Below are positions 8,577 to 63,795 of a stretch of DNA of 64,000 bases, piece by piece; positions within the stretch are counted from its first letter, which is position 1; each line of letters starts with the position of its first letter. The notes under the pieces were generated by a model, which saw only the letters and a list, made by a program, of their open reading frames with translations, was not told the origin of the DNA and searched no databases. The position numbers and the translations under genes are program-made. This stretch comes from Burkholderiales bacterium (GTDB taxonomy: Bacteria; Pseudomonadota; Gammaproteobacteria; Burkholderiales; Ga0077523). The stretch spans positions 1 through 64,000 of the forward strand of contig JAIESW010000001.1 of the NCBI GenBank assembly GCA_019745565.1, written 5' to 3'.

Positions 8577-8577
<1 letters not shown>
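7495..8577 (-). CDS. serC: phosphoserine aminotransferase
   Basis: SerC transfers the amino group of glutamate to 3-phosphohydroxypyruvate, and to the related intermediate of pyridoxal phosphate synthesis. The 360 residues begin NFSAGPAVLPEEVL and contain MSHRGKEF, FLQGGATLQFAMVPMNL, the PLP-lysine segment YAGAQKNIGPAGLVIVIV, NTPPTYGVY and the C-terminal GHRSVGGMRASIYNAMP. All are family signatures and the length is standard. The ATG at 8577 overlaps the gyrA TGA by one base (TGATG), and the end overlaps serA by eight, so serine synthesis is translationally tied to gyrase A in this operon. Confidence 0.97.
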
Positions 8578-11240
<2,663 letters not shown>

Positions 11241-11533
11241 CGACGAGGTCTGTGAACGGGCGAACGACCCGTGGAGAGATTTGTCCGATCCGGTGTCTCC
11301 GGCACACCGCAAGCCGGGTCGGAAAAAACGCGAAGTTTAGCACGCGACCACGCCGGAAATCCCCGCTCCGGGACCTCTCGAACGCTGCCTCCGCCCTATG
11401 GAACTCGACGGATGAATGTCTGTGTTATCGTTCCCGGACGCTGACCGGGAGGAGCGTCGTAGCACGCGTTGGAGCCTGAGCAGCTGACCAATCAAAGAGA
11501 CCAAGCCCGTAACCTCTCTCCAACGGTGATGCC
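11241..11533. other. intergenic region between divergent gyrA and OmpA-like gene
   Basis: This 293-bp stretch separates two divergent genes and must hold promoters for both. I see no convincing open frame, RNA or long repeat. A CCGGGAGGAG stretch near 11448-11457 is too far from the next start to be its binding site. No clear -35/-10 pair can be assigned by eye. Confidence 0.5.
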
Positions 11534-13426
11534 ATGAAATTCAAGCTCAAGAAATCCCTCATCGGGGTCGCTGCGCTGTCCGTCCTCGTGCCCGTCGCGA
11601 GCCACGCGGACACCGGCAAGGGCCAGTACATCAACGACGGGTTCAACCGGACCACCAAGGACGGCCGCGGCAGTACCTGCGTATCGAGCGGCGGCGCGGA
11701 CAACGCGTTCGATGCCGCCAACTGTGCCTCGGCCGCACAGGAAATGAGTGCAACGGCGGCCTCAGAGAGGGCCGCACGCCAGGCCGCTGCAGCGGAAGCC
11801 GCCGCTGCGGCCCAGGCGGCCCGGGAAGAGGCCATGATGGCCGTCGAGCCGGGTTCCGCGTTGAAGCCCGGCGAAAAGGGCGCATACGTGAGCCATGGCA
11901 GCGCCGCACCGATCCGCGACGGTTTCGGCCGCGCATGTGTGAAGGACGGCCGGTGGAATCCCGCCATGGCGACTGAGGAGTGCGATCCGGACCTGCACAA
12001 CCTCTATCGCTCCAAGAAAACCGCGAAACCGCAGCAGGAACTCGCACCGCGGCTCACGGCGAAACCGCCTGAAGTGGTGCGCGCGGCGCCGACGGCAGCA
12101 GCCTCTGCCGCCCCCGCTGCCGCTGCAGCGGCAGCCGCCACCGGAGCCGCGGTCGCTGCCACGAGCGCCGCCGACGATGACGTCATTCCGGCCTTCGTTC
12201 CGCCGCCGGGTGCCGACGACGATGACGTCGCCGATGCGGTCATGGCACAGGATCTCGCCCAGGACGAGGAAGTCACGCCCGACATGATGCTCTCCGAGGC
12301 CGATCGCACGTTGCCGGATGACGACGCCGCGCTGTTGGCGGCCGTACCGCTGATGGACGACGACGCCGACGAAGCGGACGACGCCATCGAAGAGCTCGCC
12401 GAGGACGACGAAGTCACGCCCGACATGATGCTCTCCGAGGCCGACCGTACGCTGGCCGACGACGAGGAAGCGGCCTTGGTCGCAGCCCTCGACGACGACG
12501 AGGACGACGACGGCGGGCCCGCCAACGACGACGGCGAGGACGAGGACACCACGCCCGACATGATGATGTCCGAGGCCGATCGCACTCTGGAAGGCGAGGA
12601 AGACGTGGCCGTGGTCGCGCTCCTGGCCGATGACGACGACGACGAGGAGGATGAAGTCGCGGCCGCCGACGACTTCGACGACGAGGAGACGACGCCGGAC
12701 ATGATGCTGGCCGAGAACGATCGCCGCCTCGACGACGAAGACATCGGCATGCTCGCCGCCATCCCCACGGACGACGACGATGACGACGCCAGGAATGTCG
12801 ACGAGGACGACGACGACGAAACGACGCCGGACATGATGCTGTCCGACGCCGACCGGACGCTCGAGGGCGAGGAGGTTTCCCCGGGCGTTGCGACGCTGAC
12901 CGACACCGCCCCGGGCGTGGCACCGCCCCCCGAAAAGGTGGAGGAAGCCAAGCCGGTCATCGACAACACGCTGCCCAACTTCCCGATCACGAAGCACGAA
13001 GTGGCGGATGCCGCGCCGGCGAAGAAAGAAGCGGTGCCGACGTCGCTGCCCGTGACCATCGACGTGAAGGAGGACGGCCTGTTCGACTTCGACCGCGCGA
13101 TCCTCAAGTCGGACCTGGTCTCCAAGCTCGACGCGGTCGCCGCCATGCTGCGTGACTCCAAGTACGAAGCGATCAACATCGTGGGCCACGCCGATCCGAT
13201 CGGCACCGAAAGCTACAACCAGGGCCTGTCGCAGCGCCGCGCCGCGGCAGCCAAGAAATACCTGGTCGGCAAGGGTATCGACGCGAGCCGCATCAACGTC
13301 ACCGCCCGGGGTGAGACTGATCTCGTGGTCGCCCGCGCCGATTGCGCCGGTCTGCGCAAGCAGGCCCTGATCGACTGCCTGCAGCCGAACCGCCGCGTCG
13401 TGGTGGAAGCCGCGGGCAGCAAGTAA
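11534..13426 (+). CDS. OmpA-family protein with five acidic repeats
   Basis: A 630-residue exported protein. It has a Sec signal (residues 1-25, cut after SHA) and two short related N-terminal modules (GQYINDGFNR... and APIRDGFGRACVKDGRWNP), the second like the Cys/Trp motif found in betaproteobacterial OmpA proteins. Then follow Ala-rich stretches, a very acidic central region of about residues 190-450 with five copies of a TPDMMLSEADRTL-type motif, and a C-terminal OmpA domain (about 505-625). The OmpA domain has LFDFDRAILKSD, IVGHADPIGTESYNQGLSQRR and PNRRVVVE, so it should bind peptidoglycan in the periplasm. No transmembrane beta-barrel is evident. It is monocistronic, ending at a strong terminator. 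The acidic region suggests cation binding or a stiff spacer; its role is unknown. Confidence 0.88.
   Translation: MKFKLKKSLIGVAALSVLVPVASHADTGKGQYINDGFNRTTKDGRGSTCVSSGGADNAFDAANCASAAQEMSATAASERAARQAAAAEAAAAAQAAREEAMMAVEPGSALKPGEKGAYVSHGSAAPIRDGFGRACVKDGRWNPAMATEECDPDLHNLYRSKKTAKPQQELAPRLTAKPPEVVRAAPTAAASAAPAAAAAAAATGAAVAATSAADDDVIPAFVPPPGADDDDVADAVMAQDLAQDEEVTPDMMLSEADRTLPDDDAALLAAVPLMDDDADEADDAIEELAEDDEVTPDMMLSEADRTLADDEEAALVAALDDDEDDDGGPANDDGEDEDTTPDMMMSEADRTLEGEEDVAVVALLADDDDDEEDEVAAADDFDDEETTPDMMLAENDRRLDDEDIGMLAAIPTDDDDDDARNVDEDDDDETTPDMMLSDADRTLEGEEVSPGVATLTDTAPGVAPPPEKVEEAKPVIDNTLPNFPITKHEVADAAPAKKEAVPTSLPVTIDVKEDGLFDFDRAILKSDLVSKLDAVAAMLRDSKYEAINIVGHADPIGTESYNQGLSQRRAAAAKKYLVGKGIDASRINVTARGETDLVVARADCAGLRKQALIDCLQPNRRVVVEAAGSK
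12266..12865 (+). repeat. five acidic protein repeats, period 44-47 codons
   Basis: Within the OmpA-like gene, the motif (E/T)-(V/T)-TPDMM(L/M)-(S/A)-(E/D)-(A/N)-DR-(T/R)-L occurs five times. Its TP threonine falls at residues 248, 295, 340, 387 and 431, giving spacings of 47, 45, 47 and 44. Runs of Asp and Glu (up to seven in a row) fill the gaps. The motif is better conserved than the acidic spacers, so selection acts on it rather than on composition alone. Confidence 0.9.
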
Positions 13427-13446
13427 CCCGAAGCACGAGAGCAGCG

Positions 13447-13478
13447 AGAGCCCTGCCGATGCAGGGCTCTTTTCTTTT
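13447..13478 (+). terminator. rho-independent terminator after OmpA-like gene
   Basis: A perfect 10-bp stem AGAGCCCTGC / GCAGGGCTCT (13447-13456 and 13461-13470) with a CGAT loop is followed by TTTCTTTT. It lies 20 bp after the stop of the OmpA-like gene and ahead of the amidohydrolase gene, so it ends the former transcript. Confidence 0.9.
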
Positions 13479-13487
13479 CCGACCACG

Positions 13488-14813
13488 ATGACGACCGTCT
13501 CGGGAACCATACAGCTGATCGAGCCGCGTTGGATCATCCCGATCGTGCCCGCGGAGGCGGTGCTCGAAGGGCATGCCGTTGCCGTCGGCGACGGACGCAT
13601 CCTGGACGTGCTGCCGTCGGGCGAAGCACGGCGACGCTATCCGGACGCCGGCGTGACCACCCTGCCCGACCACGCACTGATTCCCGGGCTGGTCAACGCG
13701 CACATCCACGCCGCCATGGCCCTGATGCGCGGGCTCGCCGACGATCTGCCGCTGATGCGCTGGCTGCAGGAACACATCTGGCCGGCTGAGGCGCGCCATG
13801 TATCGAAGGAGTTCGTCCACGACGGCACGCTGCTCGCGATCGCCGAGCTGTTGCGCGGCGGCGTCACGTGCATGAACGACATGTACTTCTTCCCCGAGAT
13901 GGCGGCCGATGCGGTCATCGAGTCGGGCATCCGCGCGGCACTCGGCATCATCGTGATCGACTTTCCCACGGTGTACGCGGCCGACGCCCAGGATTACCTC
14001 GCGAAGGGCCTCGCGATGCGCGACGCCCACAAGCACGAGTCCCGGCTGTCGTTCTGCATGGCGCCGCACGCGCCCTACACCGTCTCCGACGCCACGTTCG
14101 GCCGCATCGTGACGCTCGCGGAGCAGCTCGACATCCCGGTGCACGTGCATGTCCACGAGACGGCCGGTGAACTGCAGGACCACATCGCCAGGCACGGTGT
14201 GCGGCCGATCGAACGCATGCAGTCCCTCGGGCTGATCGGGCCGGGCTTGATCTCGGTGCACAGCGTTCATCTGAATGCAGCCGAGATCGAGCTCTACGCG
14301 TCCCACGGCTGCCACGTCGCCCATTGCCCGAGCTCGAACCTCAAGCTCGCATCGGGCTTTGCACCGGTGACCGCGATGCTGGACGCCGGCATCAACGTCG
14401 CGCTCGGCACCGACGGGGCCGCCAGCAACAACAGCCTCGACTTGTTCGAAGAGATGCGCCTGGCCGCGCTGGTCGCCAAGGGTGCGAGCGGTCGCGCAGA
14501 CGCGTTGCCTGCGCGCACGGCCCTCACCATGGCCACTCTCGGCGGCGCCCGCGCGCTTGGCCTGGAAGAGCGCATCGGCTCCATCGAAGTCGACAAGCGC
14601 GCCGACCTCGTCGCGGTGAACCTGGGCAGCCTCGAGCTTGCACCCTGCTACGACCCGGTGTCGCACCTCGTGTACTCGGCCGGACGCTCCGACGTCAGCC
14701 ACGTATGGGTGGATGGCGAGCTGCTGGTCGATGAACGTCGCTTCACGCGCCTCGATGAGGCGAACCTCGTTGCCCGCGCGCGACGCTGGCAAGGTATTCT
14801 CGCCGCGAAATGA
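13488..14813 (+). CDS. mtaD: TRZ/ATZ-family amidohydrolase (MTA/SAH deaminase type)
   Basis: The 441-residue enzyme belongs to the metal-dependent amidohydrolase superfamily, subgroup of 5-methylthioadenosine / S-adenosylhomocysteine deaminases. Metal ligands are visible in NAHIH (about residue 70), VHVHVHET (about 220) and LGTDGAASNNSLDLF (about 305). RGLADDLPLMRWLQEHIWP and AHCPSSNLKLASG are typical of the group, which deaminates the adenine ring of MTA or SAH. The next gene is ubiG, a SAM-dependent methyltransferase that makes SAH, which fits a role in clearing methylation by-products; this pairing recurs in relatives. The exact substrate (MTA, SAH or another aminohydrolase substrate) is inferred. 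Confidence 0.85.
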   Translation: MTTVSGTIQLIEPRWIIPIVPAEAVLEGHAVAVGDGRILDVLPSGEARRRYPDAGVTTLPDHALIPGLVNAHIHAAMALMRGLADDLPLMRWLQEHIWPAEARHVSKEFVHDGTLLAIAELLRGGVTCMNDMYFFPEMAADAVIESGIRAALGIIVIDFPTVYAADAQDYLAKGLAMRDAHKHESRLSFCMAPHAPYTVSDATFGRIVTLAEQLDIPVHVHVHETAGELQDHIARHGVRPIERMQSLGLIGPGLISVHSVHLNAAEIELYASHGCHVAHCPSSNLKLASGFAPVTAMLDAGINVALGTDGAASNNSLDLFEEMRLAALVAKGASGRADALPARTALTMATLGGARALGLEERIGSIEVDKRADLVAVNLGSLELAPCYDPVSHLVYSAGRSDVSHVWVDGELLVDERRFTRLDEANLVARARRWQGILAAK

Positions 14814-14828
14814 GATGAAACCGCCCCC

Positions 14829-15527
14829 ATGATCAACGTCGATCCCGTCGAACTCGAGAAATTCAGCGCCCTCGCGCACCGCTGGTGGGACCCGACCAGC
14901 GAGTTCAAGCCGCTGCACGACATCAATCCGCTGCGGCTCGACCACATCGACCGCCTGGCCGGCCTTGCGGGCAAGCGCGTGCTCGACGTCGGTTGCGGCG
15001 GCGGCATCCTGGCGGAATCCATGGCAGTGCGCGGCGCGCAGGTGACCGGCATCGACCTGGCGGAGAAGCCGCTCAAAGTGGCGCAACTGCATCTGCTCGA
15101 AACCGGAAATCACGTCGACTACCGGCTCGCCTCGGTGGAGTCCATCGCGCAATCCGAACCGGCGAGCTTCGAGGTCGTGACCTGCATGGAGATGCTGGAG
15201 CACGTGCCCGATCCGGCGCAGACGGTCCGCTCCTGCGCTGCCGCCGCGCAGCCCGGCGCGCGATTGTTCTTCTCCACCATCAATCGCAACCCGAAGTCCT
15301 ACCTCTTCGCGATCATCGGCGCCGAGTACCTGCTGCAGCTCCTGCCCAAGGGCACGCACGACTACGCGAAGTTCATCCGCCCCTCGGAACTCGCCGCATA
15401 CTGCCGCGGCGCCGGCCTGATGGTGACGGGCTATACGGGCATGACTTACAACCCGATCACGAAAACCTACGCGCTCGGCCGCGACATCTCGGTCAACTAC
15501 ATCGTCGAAGCGCGCAAGCCCGCATGA
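14829..15527 (+). CDS. ubiG: ubiquinone biosynthesis O-methyltransferase
   Basis: UbiG carries out both O-methylations of ubiquinone synthesis using SAM. The 232 residues start [21 protein letters not shown], a UbiG hallmark. They contain the SAM-binding [39 protein letters not shown], and [21 protein letters not shown], the amphipathic membrane-contacting segment. Length is normal. It starts 15 bp after the amidohydrolase and ends in an ATGA overlap with the next gene, so the three genes form one operon. Confidence 0.96.
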
Positions 15528-20195: not shown

Positions 20196-20468
20196 TACTA
20201 CCTACGGTCTTGATTCTTCAGTGGACATGTGACGCTGGGGGTCAAGGTTGGGGGTCAATCGTATGGCTCACCGGCTGCAACCGAAACCCGTAACGCGTGC
20301 CTCGCACCGCACGAGGGTTGCGGCTGCGGGGGCTGTCCTCGTGGTGTGCAATTCGCCGCTGTGACTGCGTCCTATACCTCACGGGACCGCATCTCGATGG
20401 CACAGTGTTAGTTGCCAAGGCAACTAGCGTGCGACTGGTACGGGGGTCGCCCTGAACGCCTATGCAGC

Positions 20469-20510
20469 GGGGTCCGGGGTCCGGGGTCCGGGGTCCGGGG
20501 TCCGGGGTCC
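20469..20510. repeat. six tandem copies of GGGGTCC
   Basis: A perfect 7-bp unit, GGGGTCC, is repeated six times (42 bp) and followed by GCGGCCC. The tract is a simple-sequence repeat that could vary in copy number. It lies between ssrA and a small secreted-protein gene read from the other strand, about 50 bp past that gene's stop. Confidence 0.95.
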
Positions 20511-20559
20511 GCGGCCCACGGCCGATGCAATTCGACTGCGTCAACCGCGGAGGATCGCG

Positions 20560-62265: not shown

Positions 62266-63537
62266 TCATTGAACCTTGAGGTTGTACTCCTTCAGGGTCG
62301 CGACCACTTCGACCCGGCGATCGCGCTGCAGGCAGTCGATCAGCGCATCGCGCTTCAGACCCTTGCACTCGTCGGGCGTGGTGAGCGGTGCGGCCTTGCC
62401 GCGCCCCACCACTGTGAGCTTGTAGGGCGGCACACCCTTGTCCATCAGGTAGCCGGCGACGGCCCACGCGCGCTTCTCTGAGAGCTGCTGGTTGTACTCC
62501 TCGGTCCCGATGCGGTCGGTGTAGCCGTGCACGATGAGCCGGTCGTAGGGCGCTTCCTTCAGCTTGTCCCAGATCTCGTCGAGCTTCCCCTTCACTTCGC
62601 TGTTGAGCTCGTACTTGTCGAACTCGAACTGGCCTTGCTCGTCCATGTTGAAAGTGGCCGGCAGCGTACCGCCCAGGGTCTGCAGCTTCTCGTCCTGGTC
62701 GATCACCACGCGGTTGGCTGCGGTTTCGACGCGGCCGCGGCGCTCGGCTTCCAGCGCCTCTTCGCGTTCGCGCTGCGCGCGCGCCGCGGCTTCGGCCGCG
62801 GTCTCTTGTGCTCCGCCGCCTGCGGCAGCCGCGCCCGCACCGCCGGCTCCACCAGCGCCAGTGCCTCCGGCACCGGCTCCGCCCGCACCTTTGGCTGCGG
62901 CAACGTCGGTATCACCGCCGCCCGCACCTTTGCGACCGCCCGCCGCGCCCCCTGCCGTTGCGCCTCCGGCACCGCCCGCCGCGCTCGAGCCCGCAGCGGT
63001 CGAACCTGCCCCGGACTTGTTGCTGCTGCCCGCCGCTGCGCTTCCCGCCGCAGCGCCGCCGGCAGCGGTCGATCCGGCCGCGCCCTTGGCGCCGCCGCCG
63101 GCACCCGCCGTATTGGATCCGCCTGCACCCGCGCCGCCGGCTCCTCCAGCCGCACCCGCACCGCCCGTGGATCGTCCGCCGGCCCCGGCTGCACCGCTCG
63201 AATCGGCACCGGATGCGTTCGCGCCATCGGCGGAAAGCGCGGTGACTTCAGCGCCGGAATTGTTCGTGCCCTTTACCGTCGGGTCGGAACTGCCTGTGGC
63301 ACCGGGTCCGCTGCGGGCGCCGGCCGCGCTGCTGCCGGTCGTGGACCCGCTCTGTCCCGCCGTCTTGGAACCTGCAGCCGTCGCCGCACTCTGACCGCTG
63401 CTGCCCGTCGCTTTCGTCGGCGCGACGCCGACGAGCGAGCGCGTGCACGCCCCGAGGCTCAACGCGAGAACCGCGACCGAGAGGCCCGTGATCAGTCGAG
63501 TCGACGATCGGGGTCTGCGTACTGTTGCGTTCGTCAT
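62266..63537 (-). CDS. OmpA-family lipoprotein with Gly/Ala/Ser-rich linker
   Basis: A 423-residue outer-membrane lipoprotein. The signal VAVLALSLGAC gives a lipidated Cys near residue 30. Next comes a low-complexity region of about 220 residues (about 35-255), made almost only of Gly, Ala, Ser and Thr with GAGGAGGAGA-like runs. A short charged helix (EAAARAQREREEALEAERRG) leads to the OmpA peptidoglycan-binding domain (about 300-415; FEFDKYELNSEVKGKLDEIW, LIVHGYTDRIGTEEYNQQLS, DRRVEVVATLKEY). It probably tethers the outer membrane to the cell wall, with the flexible linker as spacer. AAGGAGGG precedes the ATG at 63537. It is monocistronic with its own terminator. Confidence 0.9.
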   Translation of the reverse strand: MTNATVRRPRSSTRLITGLSVAVLALSLGACTRSLVGVAPTKATGSSGQSAATAAGSKTAGQSGSTTGSSAAGARSGPGATGSSDPTVKGTNNSGAEVTALSADGANASGADSSGAAGAGGRSTGGAGAAGGAGGAGAGGSNTAGAGGGAKGAAGSTAAGGAAAGSAAAGSSNKSGAGSTAAGSSAAGGAGGATAGGAAGGRKGAGGGDTDVAAAKGAGGAGAGGTGAGGAGGAGAAAAGGGAQETAAEAAARAQREREEALEAERRGRVETAANRVVIDQDEKLQTLGGTLPATFNMDEQGQFEFDKYELNSEVKGKLDEIWDKLKEAPYDRLIVHGYTDRIGTEEYNQQLSEKRAWAVAGYLMDKGVPPYKLTVVGRGKAAPLTTPDECKGLKRDALIDCLQRDRRVEVVATLKEYNLKVQ

Positions 63538-63795
63538 GGTCCTTCCCTCCTTCAATCGTTGCGCCATTAGTCCTGAACCTTCGTCATCGGTTCCCGGCAC
63601 TGAAAACTTGAGAACATTTCGTCGCCGAATCCCGACGACGCCGGCTCGCGGGAACCCTCAATGCGCGCATTTTGCATTCCCGGGCCGCGAACAGGGGAAA
63701 CAAATTGCGTCGGCCGAGCGTTCGATGAACGCGACAACGCGTGATCGCACATGCGGCGGAGGCTCCGGGCCCGCGTGCTAACCTCTCGCGCCACC
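63538..63795. other. intergenic region between divergent genes
   Basis: About 258 bp between the OmpA lipoprotein gene and the DsbD-like gene, holding both promoters. No gene, RNA or repeat is recognised. Confidence 0.45.

What the first reader, a model, noticed from the sequence alone, without database searches (positions are those of the whole stretch)
12266..12865. Five acidic repeats in an OmpA-type protein
The motif TPDMMLSEADRTL recurs five times at a 44-47-residue period, separated by runs of Asp/Glu, between an exported N-terminus and a peptidoglycan-binding OmpA domain. The motif is kept while the acidic spacers drift. I do not know this repeat family. The acidic spacers could bind calcium or other cations, and the motif might be a docking site.
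Basis: seen in the sequence. Interest (0 to 1): 0.65.

Follow-up and report, generated by a model that had tools for sequence, protein, structure and literature searches.

The report
OmpA wall anchor with acidic repeats
This is the ordinary betaproteobacterial OmpA protein that ties the outer membrane to the cell wall, but in this one uncultured genus its short linker has grown into a long, very acidic, unstructured stretch carrying copies of a strongly conserved 13-letter motif of unknown binding partner.

Summary
The gene at 11534-13426 (+) encodes 630 aa with five TPDMMLSEADRTL copies, spaced 47/45/47/44 residues, between a signal-like N-terminus and an OmpA (PF00691) domain. By gene order (gyrA, ompA, amidohydrolase, methyltransferase) and by a Cys/Trp N-terminal module it is the housekeeping betaproteobacterial OmpA of the Bordetella OmpA/Neisseria RmpM type. 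In other families of the order this protein is about 210-300 aa with a short Pro/Ala linker. In this genus (12 species held) the linker is 170-425 aa, acidic and mostly repetitive (period about 35-47 residues), and the repeated motif differs between clades. TPDMM..ADR.L occurs 5, 4, 4, 3, 1 and 1 times in six congeners and in 0 of 387 other genomes of the order, always in this gene. Across three species the motif is more constrained than the OmpA domain (49/52 against 94/124 invariant columns) with no drop in synonymous change, while the spacers drift. AlphaFold2 gives no structure to the linker. Best reading: an RmpM-like outer membrane to peptidoglycan tether whose linker became an anionic disordered spacer with several copies of a docking motif. 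Partner and cation binding are untested. New variant of a known kind.

The parts
11534..13426 (+). ompA-type gene, 630 aa (RmpM/Bordetella-OmpA type) with expanded acidic linker
   Evidence: OmpA domain; synteny
11534..11608 (+). signal-peptide-like N-terminus (MKFKLKKSLIGVAALSVLVPVASHA)
   Evidence: sequence by eye; strongly conserved in the congeners
11714..11836 (+). Ala-rich predicted helix, residues 61-101
   Evidence: AF2, pLDDT 64-79
11876..11998 (+). N-terminal Cys/Trp module (residues 115-155), homologous to the N-module of short betaproteobacterial OmpAs
   Evidence: HMM match iE 6.7e-8, Z=1000
12179..12880 (+). acidic repeat region (residues 216-449), predicted disordered
   Evidence: composition; AF2
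12275..12313 (+). motif copy 1 TPDMMLSEADRTL
12416..12454 (+). motif copy 2 TPDMMLSEADRTL
12551..12589 (+). motif copy 3 TPDMMMSEADRTL (its unit has no counterpart in G008/G009)
12692..12730 (+). motif copy 4 TPDMMLAENDRRL
12824..12862 (+). motif copy 5 TPDMMLSDADRTL
13052..13423 (+). C-terminal OmpA-like peptidoglycan-binding domain with its flanks (residues 507-630; PF00691 at 516-601)
13446..13471 (+). terminator-like hairpin (11-pair stem) just after the gene
   Evidence: consensus match only
8577..11312 (-). gyrA, divergent conserved neighbour
13488..14813 (+). amidohydrolase (mtaD-like), conserved downstream neighbour
14829..15527 (+). ubiG-like methyltransferase, conserved neighbour

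Best explanation
It is the genus's version of the housekeeping betaproteobacterial OmpA (Bordetella OmpA / Neisseria RmpM type). The exported protein sits in the periplasm. Its N-terminal Cys/Trp module holds it to outer-membrane protein complexes (inferred from RmpM) and its C-terminal OmpA domain grips peptidoglycan (inferred from the family). The usual ~30-40-residue Pro/Ala linker has been replaced by a ~350-residue, strongly anionic, disordered linker (shown: length, charge, no predicted structure). That linker was most likely built by tandem duplication of a ~45-residue unit. Within each unit a 13-residue segment, perhaps a short helix that forms on binding, is kept by purifying selection (shown) and most likely acts as a repeated docking site for a periplasmic or outer-membrane partner (inferred). 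The acidic spacers act as expanded, self-repelling and weakly cation-holding connectors whose exact sequence does not matter (inferred).
For: Orthology: gyrA(-), ompA, mtaD order holds in eight short-OmpA loci from other families (L015, L020, L021, L026, L030, L032, L033, L034) and in the congeners where the flanks are held; N-module homology; OmpA domain. Linker expansion is genus-specific: 174-425 aa in congeners, while matches to the short-type OmpA in 79 of 120 sampled order genomes span about 430-720 nt with no long insertion. Motif restricted to this gene and genus. Constraint: 49/52 motif columns invariant in three species against 85/132 spacer (p 1.5e-5) and 94/124 OmpA-domain columns (p 0.003), with motif pN 0.017-0.025 and pS 0.30-0.60. 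Copies 4 and 5 keep positional identity across species (0.86-0.89 against 0.43-0.71 for other pairs), so recent homogenisation does not explain the similarity there. Disorder: pLDDT 28-42 over residues 181-500. RmpM: N-terminus associates with porin and Omp85 complexes, C-terminus with peptidoglycan (PMC4226279).
Against: Six of 12 congeners lack a clear motif copy: G001, G005, G006, G007 and G011 have none and G002 only a weak, decayed-looking one. They carry other repeats, so the docking role cannot be essential or genus-wide. No partner is identified. Porin binding by this N-module and the periplasmic location of the linker are inferred; surface exposure of RmpM is itself debated (PMC4226279). 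Motif boundaries were defined by conservation between copies in this protein, which biases the motif test somewhat, and only three close species enter it. AlphaFold2 with 12 sequences shows no helix in the motif.
Confidence: 0.55

Rival explanations
1. Pure spacer / polyanion: the linker works only by length and charge (setting or softening the membrane-wall distance, holding divalent cations). The motif is a by-product of tandem duplication, with folding or solubility constraint but no partner.
For: Length (170-425 aa) and acidity are kept in the genus while the repeat motif differs between clades; spacers drift; no structure predicted; half of the congeners lack a clear motif copy.
Against: The motif is more conserved than the OmpA domain at comparable or higher synonymous divergence. 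It is absent from the rest of the order and from other genes, and a single copy is kept in distant G003.
Confidence: 0.27
2. The acidic repeats are specific calcium-binding modules that fold on Ca2+ (as in TSP3 or RTX repeats), making the tether cation-responsive.
For: 42% D+E in the repeat region, with acidic runs in every spacer.
Against: No TSP3 or RTX signature, one isolated EF/dockerin-like stretch, and the acidic stretches drift in length and sequence between copies and species, unlike folded metal sites.
Confidence: 0.1
3. The repeat region is surface-exposed (adhesin, matrix or decoy role), with the N-module inserted in or across the outer membrane.
For: RmpM/PIII is reported to have surface epitopes (PMC4226279); fast repeat turnover between species resembles surface proteins.
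Against: No barrel predicted; [quoted passage not shown] the C-domain must sit at peptidoglycan.
Confidence: 0.08

Closest known systems
Neisseria RmpM / PIII (class 4 outer membrane protein)
   Same: OmpA-like C-domain (PDB 1r1m hit), exported, no predicted barrel. From memory, the RmpM N-terminus carries a similar Cys module (not tested here); it is known to associate with OMP complexes (PMC4226279).
   Different: By my knowledge RmpM has a short linker; here it is ~350 aa, acidic and repetitive.
Bordetella-type OmpA (NCBIfam NF045787)
   Same: Best curated family match (97.5 bits, two stretches). A short syntenic OmpA from another family of the order scores 151.7 bits to it.
   Different: Below the equivalog cut-off of 200; the family model has 194 positions and no acidic linker.
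OmpA-family proteins with thrombospondin type-3 calcium repeats in front of the OmpA domain
   Same: Acidic repeats before an OmpA domain (recalled, not tested).
   Different: No DxDxDGxxDxxD pattern here, no predicted barrel, and the conserved 13-mer is mixed hydrophobic/acidic.
CBS domains
   Same: One CBS-like protein segment (G020, VTPDMMLSDAVLTMAEHDIG) resembles the motif at E 3.7e-4; both look like Thr-Pro-capped helices.
   Different: Isolated chance-level similarity; no CBS domain found in the window protein.

Membership tests
OmpA family (PF00691) | OmpA-like peptidoglycan-binding domain above the gathering score | tested here: met
   64.4 bits against 27.2
Bordetella OmpA equivalog NF045787 | whole-protein score above curated cut-off 200 | tested here: not met
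   97.5 bits
Betaproteobacterial (RmpM-type) OmpA | gene order gyrA-ompA-mtaD as in the short-OmpA loci of the order | tested here: met
Betaproteobacterial (RmpM-type) OmpA | N-terminal C..W.P..A..C module | tested here: met
   iE 6.7e-8, Z=1000, HMM from nine short OmpAs
Betaproteobacterial (RmpM-type) OmpA | no beta-barrel | tested here: met
   AF2 strands of 3 or more residues only at 507-627; the N-terminal half is modelled at low confidence
Betaproteobacterial (RmpM-type) OmpA | associates with porin/Omp85 complexes through the N-terminus | not testable with these tools
   known for RmpM (PMC4226279)
Thrombospondin type-3 / RTX / EF-hand calcium repeats | repeated metal-loop signature | tested here: not met
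   no TSP3 or RTX; one isolated DEDDDG
Any Pfam repeat family | profile match to the repeat | tested here: not met
   0 families at E up to 10

The most novel reading that the evidence does not exclude
In this genus OmpA has been turned from a simple tether into a multivalent periplasmic scaffold: a disordered polyanionic chain displaying one to five copies of a short linear docking motif, with clade-specific motif turnover in a repeat of roughly constant (~45-residue) length, recruiting a dedicated envelope partner.
Probability: 0.35. Interest if true: 0.6.

Novelty: new variant of a known kind. Interest (0 to 1): 0.38.

Why it matters
OmpA-type tethers are usually treated as fixed-length links between outer membrane and wall. 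A genus in which the same syntenic protein keeps both anchors but carries a 170-425-residue anionic, mostly repeat-bearing disordered linker offers a natural series (motif copies 0 to 5) for asking what such linkers do, and gives a sharp, testable short linear motif.

Tried and rejected
Known repeat family: rejected. Gene conversion as the cause of motif similarity: disfavoured, since copies 4 and 5 match their orthologues (0.86-0.89) better than their paralogues and within-protein synonymous divergence is high; copies 1 and 2 are less clear-cut (G009 copy 1 is nearer to G000 copy 2), so some exchange is not excluded. Antisense coding as the cause of constraint (ORFs 11762-13600 and 12004-13206 on -): unlikely, because synonymous change in the motif (0.58-0.60 between the window and G008/G009) is not reduced. 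Motif in other proteins of the genome: none convincing; weak profile hits examined were PyrG and a CBS-like protein. RNA element: no Rfam match. Exact-motif literature search: nothing. Papers on OmpA proteins with acidic repeats like these: none found. TSP3/RTX: pattern absent.

Full report
Observation. The ORF 11534-13426 (+) encodes 630 aa. Five copies of TPDMM[LM][SA][ED][AN]DR[TR]L lie at residues 248, 295, 340, 387 and 431, spaced 47/45/47/44. Between copies, synonymous differences are 0.44 per site against 0.10 non-synonymous. So the copies are old and the amino acids are kept. The repeat region is 42% Asp+Glu, and the protein's calculated pI is at or below 4.05, the floor of the calculation. 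Each unit reads: 13-residue motif, about four mostly acidic residues, a short Ala/Val/Leu patch, then an acidic run.

What the protein is. Pfam sees only an OmpA domain at 516-601. The best curated family is Bordetella OmpA, below its cut-off. PDB matches are OmpA C-domains, including Neisseria RmpM (1r1m, 'outer membrane protein class 4'). The gene sits between divergent gyrA and an amidohydrolase (mtaD-like), followed by a ubiG-like methyltransferase and gph. The gyrA-ompA-mtaD order holds at eight loci of other families of the same order (L015, L020, L021, L026, L030, L032, L033, L034), where OmpA is 212-246 aa. An HMM of the N-terminal module of nine such short OmpAs hits window residues 115-155. 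So this is the syntenic housekeeping OmpA of the order, with a grown linker.

How widespread the linker is. The congeners have long acidic linkers: 174-425 aa where measured, with open frames of 428-900 aa. G001 is split over two contigs and G004's frame starts at a contig edge. In 120 genomes sampled from the order, 79 have a match at E <= 1e-30 to the short-type protein. Those matches span about 430-720 nt, leaving no room for a long insertion. The sample included four members of the genus (the window's own among them), which gave no such match, as expected if the similarity is split by the linker.

Motif distribution. The degenerate DNA pattern occurs in this gene in G000 (5), G008 (4), G009 (3, plus one TPDMI copy), G010 (3) and G004 (1), and in none of the 387 genomes from other families. 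A PSSM also finds one clear copy in the distant congener G003 (TPDMILSQADRTL, 0 of 2000 shuffles) and a weak one in G002 (p 0.02). None is found in G001, G005, G006, G007 and G011. Most of those species have other repeats in the same place. Periods that exceed the shuffle limit are G003 44, G007 43 and G001 38; those of G006 (43), G002 (44) and G011 (37) do not. On a tree of the OmpA domain, G002 and G003 lie on the other side of the deepest split in the genus from the window's clade. A single ancestral motif later amplified is the simplest reading. It rests mainly on G003.

Constraint. In G000, G008 and G009, 49 of 52 motif columns are invariant, against 85/132 spacer and 94/124 OmpA-domain columns (Fisher p 1.5e-5 and 0.003). 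Pairwise motif pN is 0.017-0.025 with pS 0.30-0.60; spacer pN is 0.135-0.179. Copies 4 and 5 resemble their orthologues (0.86-0.89) more than their paralogues. Copies 1 and 2 are less clear-cut. Caveats: three close species, columns treated as independent, and motif boundaries chosen from this protein.

Structure. AlphaFold2 on 12 orthologues gives the OmpA domain mostly at pLDDT 80-89, an Ala-rich helix 61-101 (64-79), and residues 181-500 at 28-42 with no secondary structure. The linker is best read as disordered. A helix forming on binding is only an inference from the Thr-Pro-Asp start of the motif.

Mechanism. RmpM is known to associate through its N-terminus with OMP complexes including Omp85 and through its C-terminus with peptidoglycan; [quoted passage not shown] By homology the present linker would lie in the periplasm. 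A ~350-residue disordered polyanion is far longer than needed to bridge membrane and wall (rough estimate, general polymer knowledge), so a pure minimal tether is unlikely. The kept motif suggests repeated docking; the drifting spacers suggest that only charge and length matter there. Calcium binding has no specific support.

Verdict. Real, correctly located and not filler in its motif part. It is a lineage-specific elaboration of a well-known protein, with an undescribed repeat and an unknown partner.

Noticed in passing
window 62266-63600 (-): A second OmpA-domain protein with a Gly/Ala/Ser-rich low-complexity linker and a lipoprotein-like signal (LSLGAC), about 40% identical to the window OmpA over the C-domain; several congeners carry a similar match.
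   Followed up: partly
window 20468-20511: 6.3 perfect copies of the heptamer CGGGGTC.
   Followed up: no
L040 1203-3239 and L052 1500-3323: In congeners G001 and G011 Cys-containing N-terminal modules of the same OmpA appear to be duplicated, so both ends of the protein gain repeats in this genus.
   Followed up: partly
window 12899-13006 and congeners: A second linker motif, PGVAPPPEKxxxxKPxIDNxxPxFPxTxY, recurs across much of the genus and is duplicated in some species (G003, G004), apart from the acidic repeats.
   Followed up: partly
L048 1425-3788 (-), L047 1416-3611 (-), L040 1203-3239: Sister species carry a different acidic repeat (TAYLGDG..., with a VAMVADDDD patch in G006 and G007), with period 43 in G007 and 38 in G001.
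   Followed up: partly
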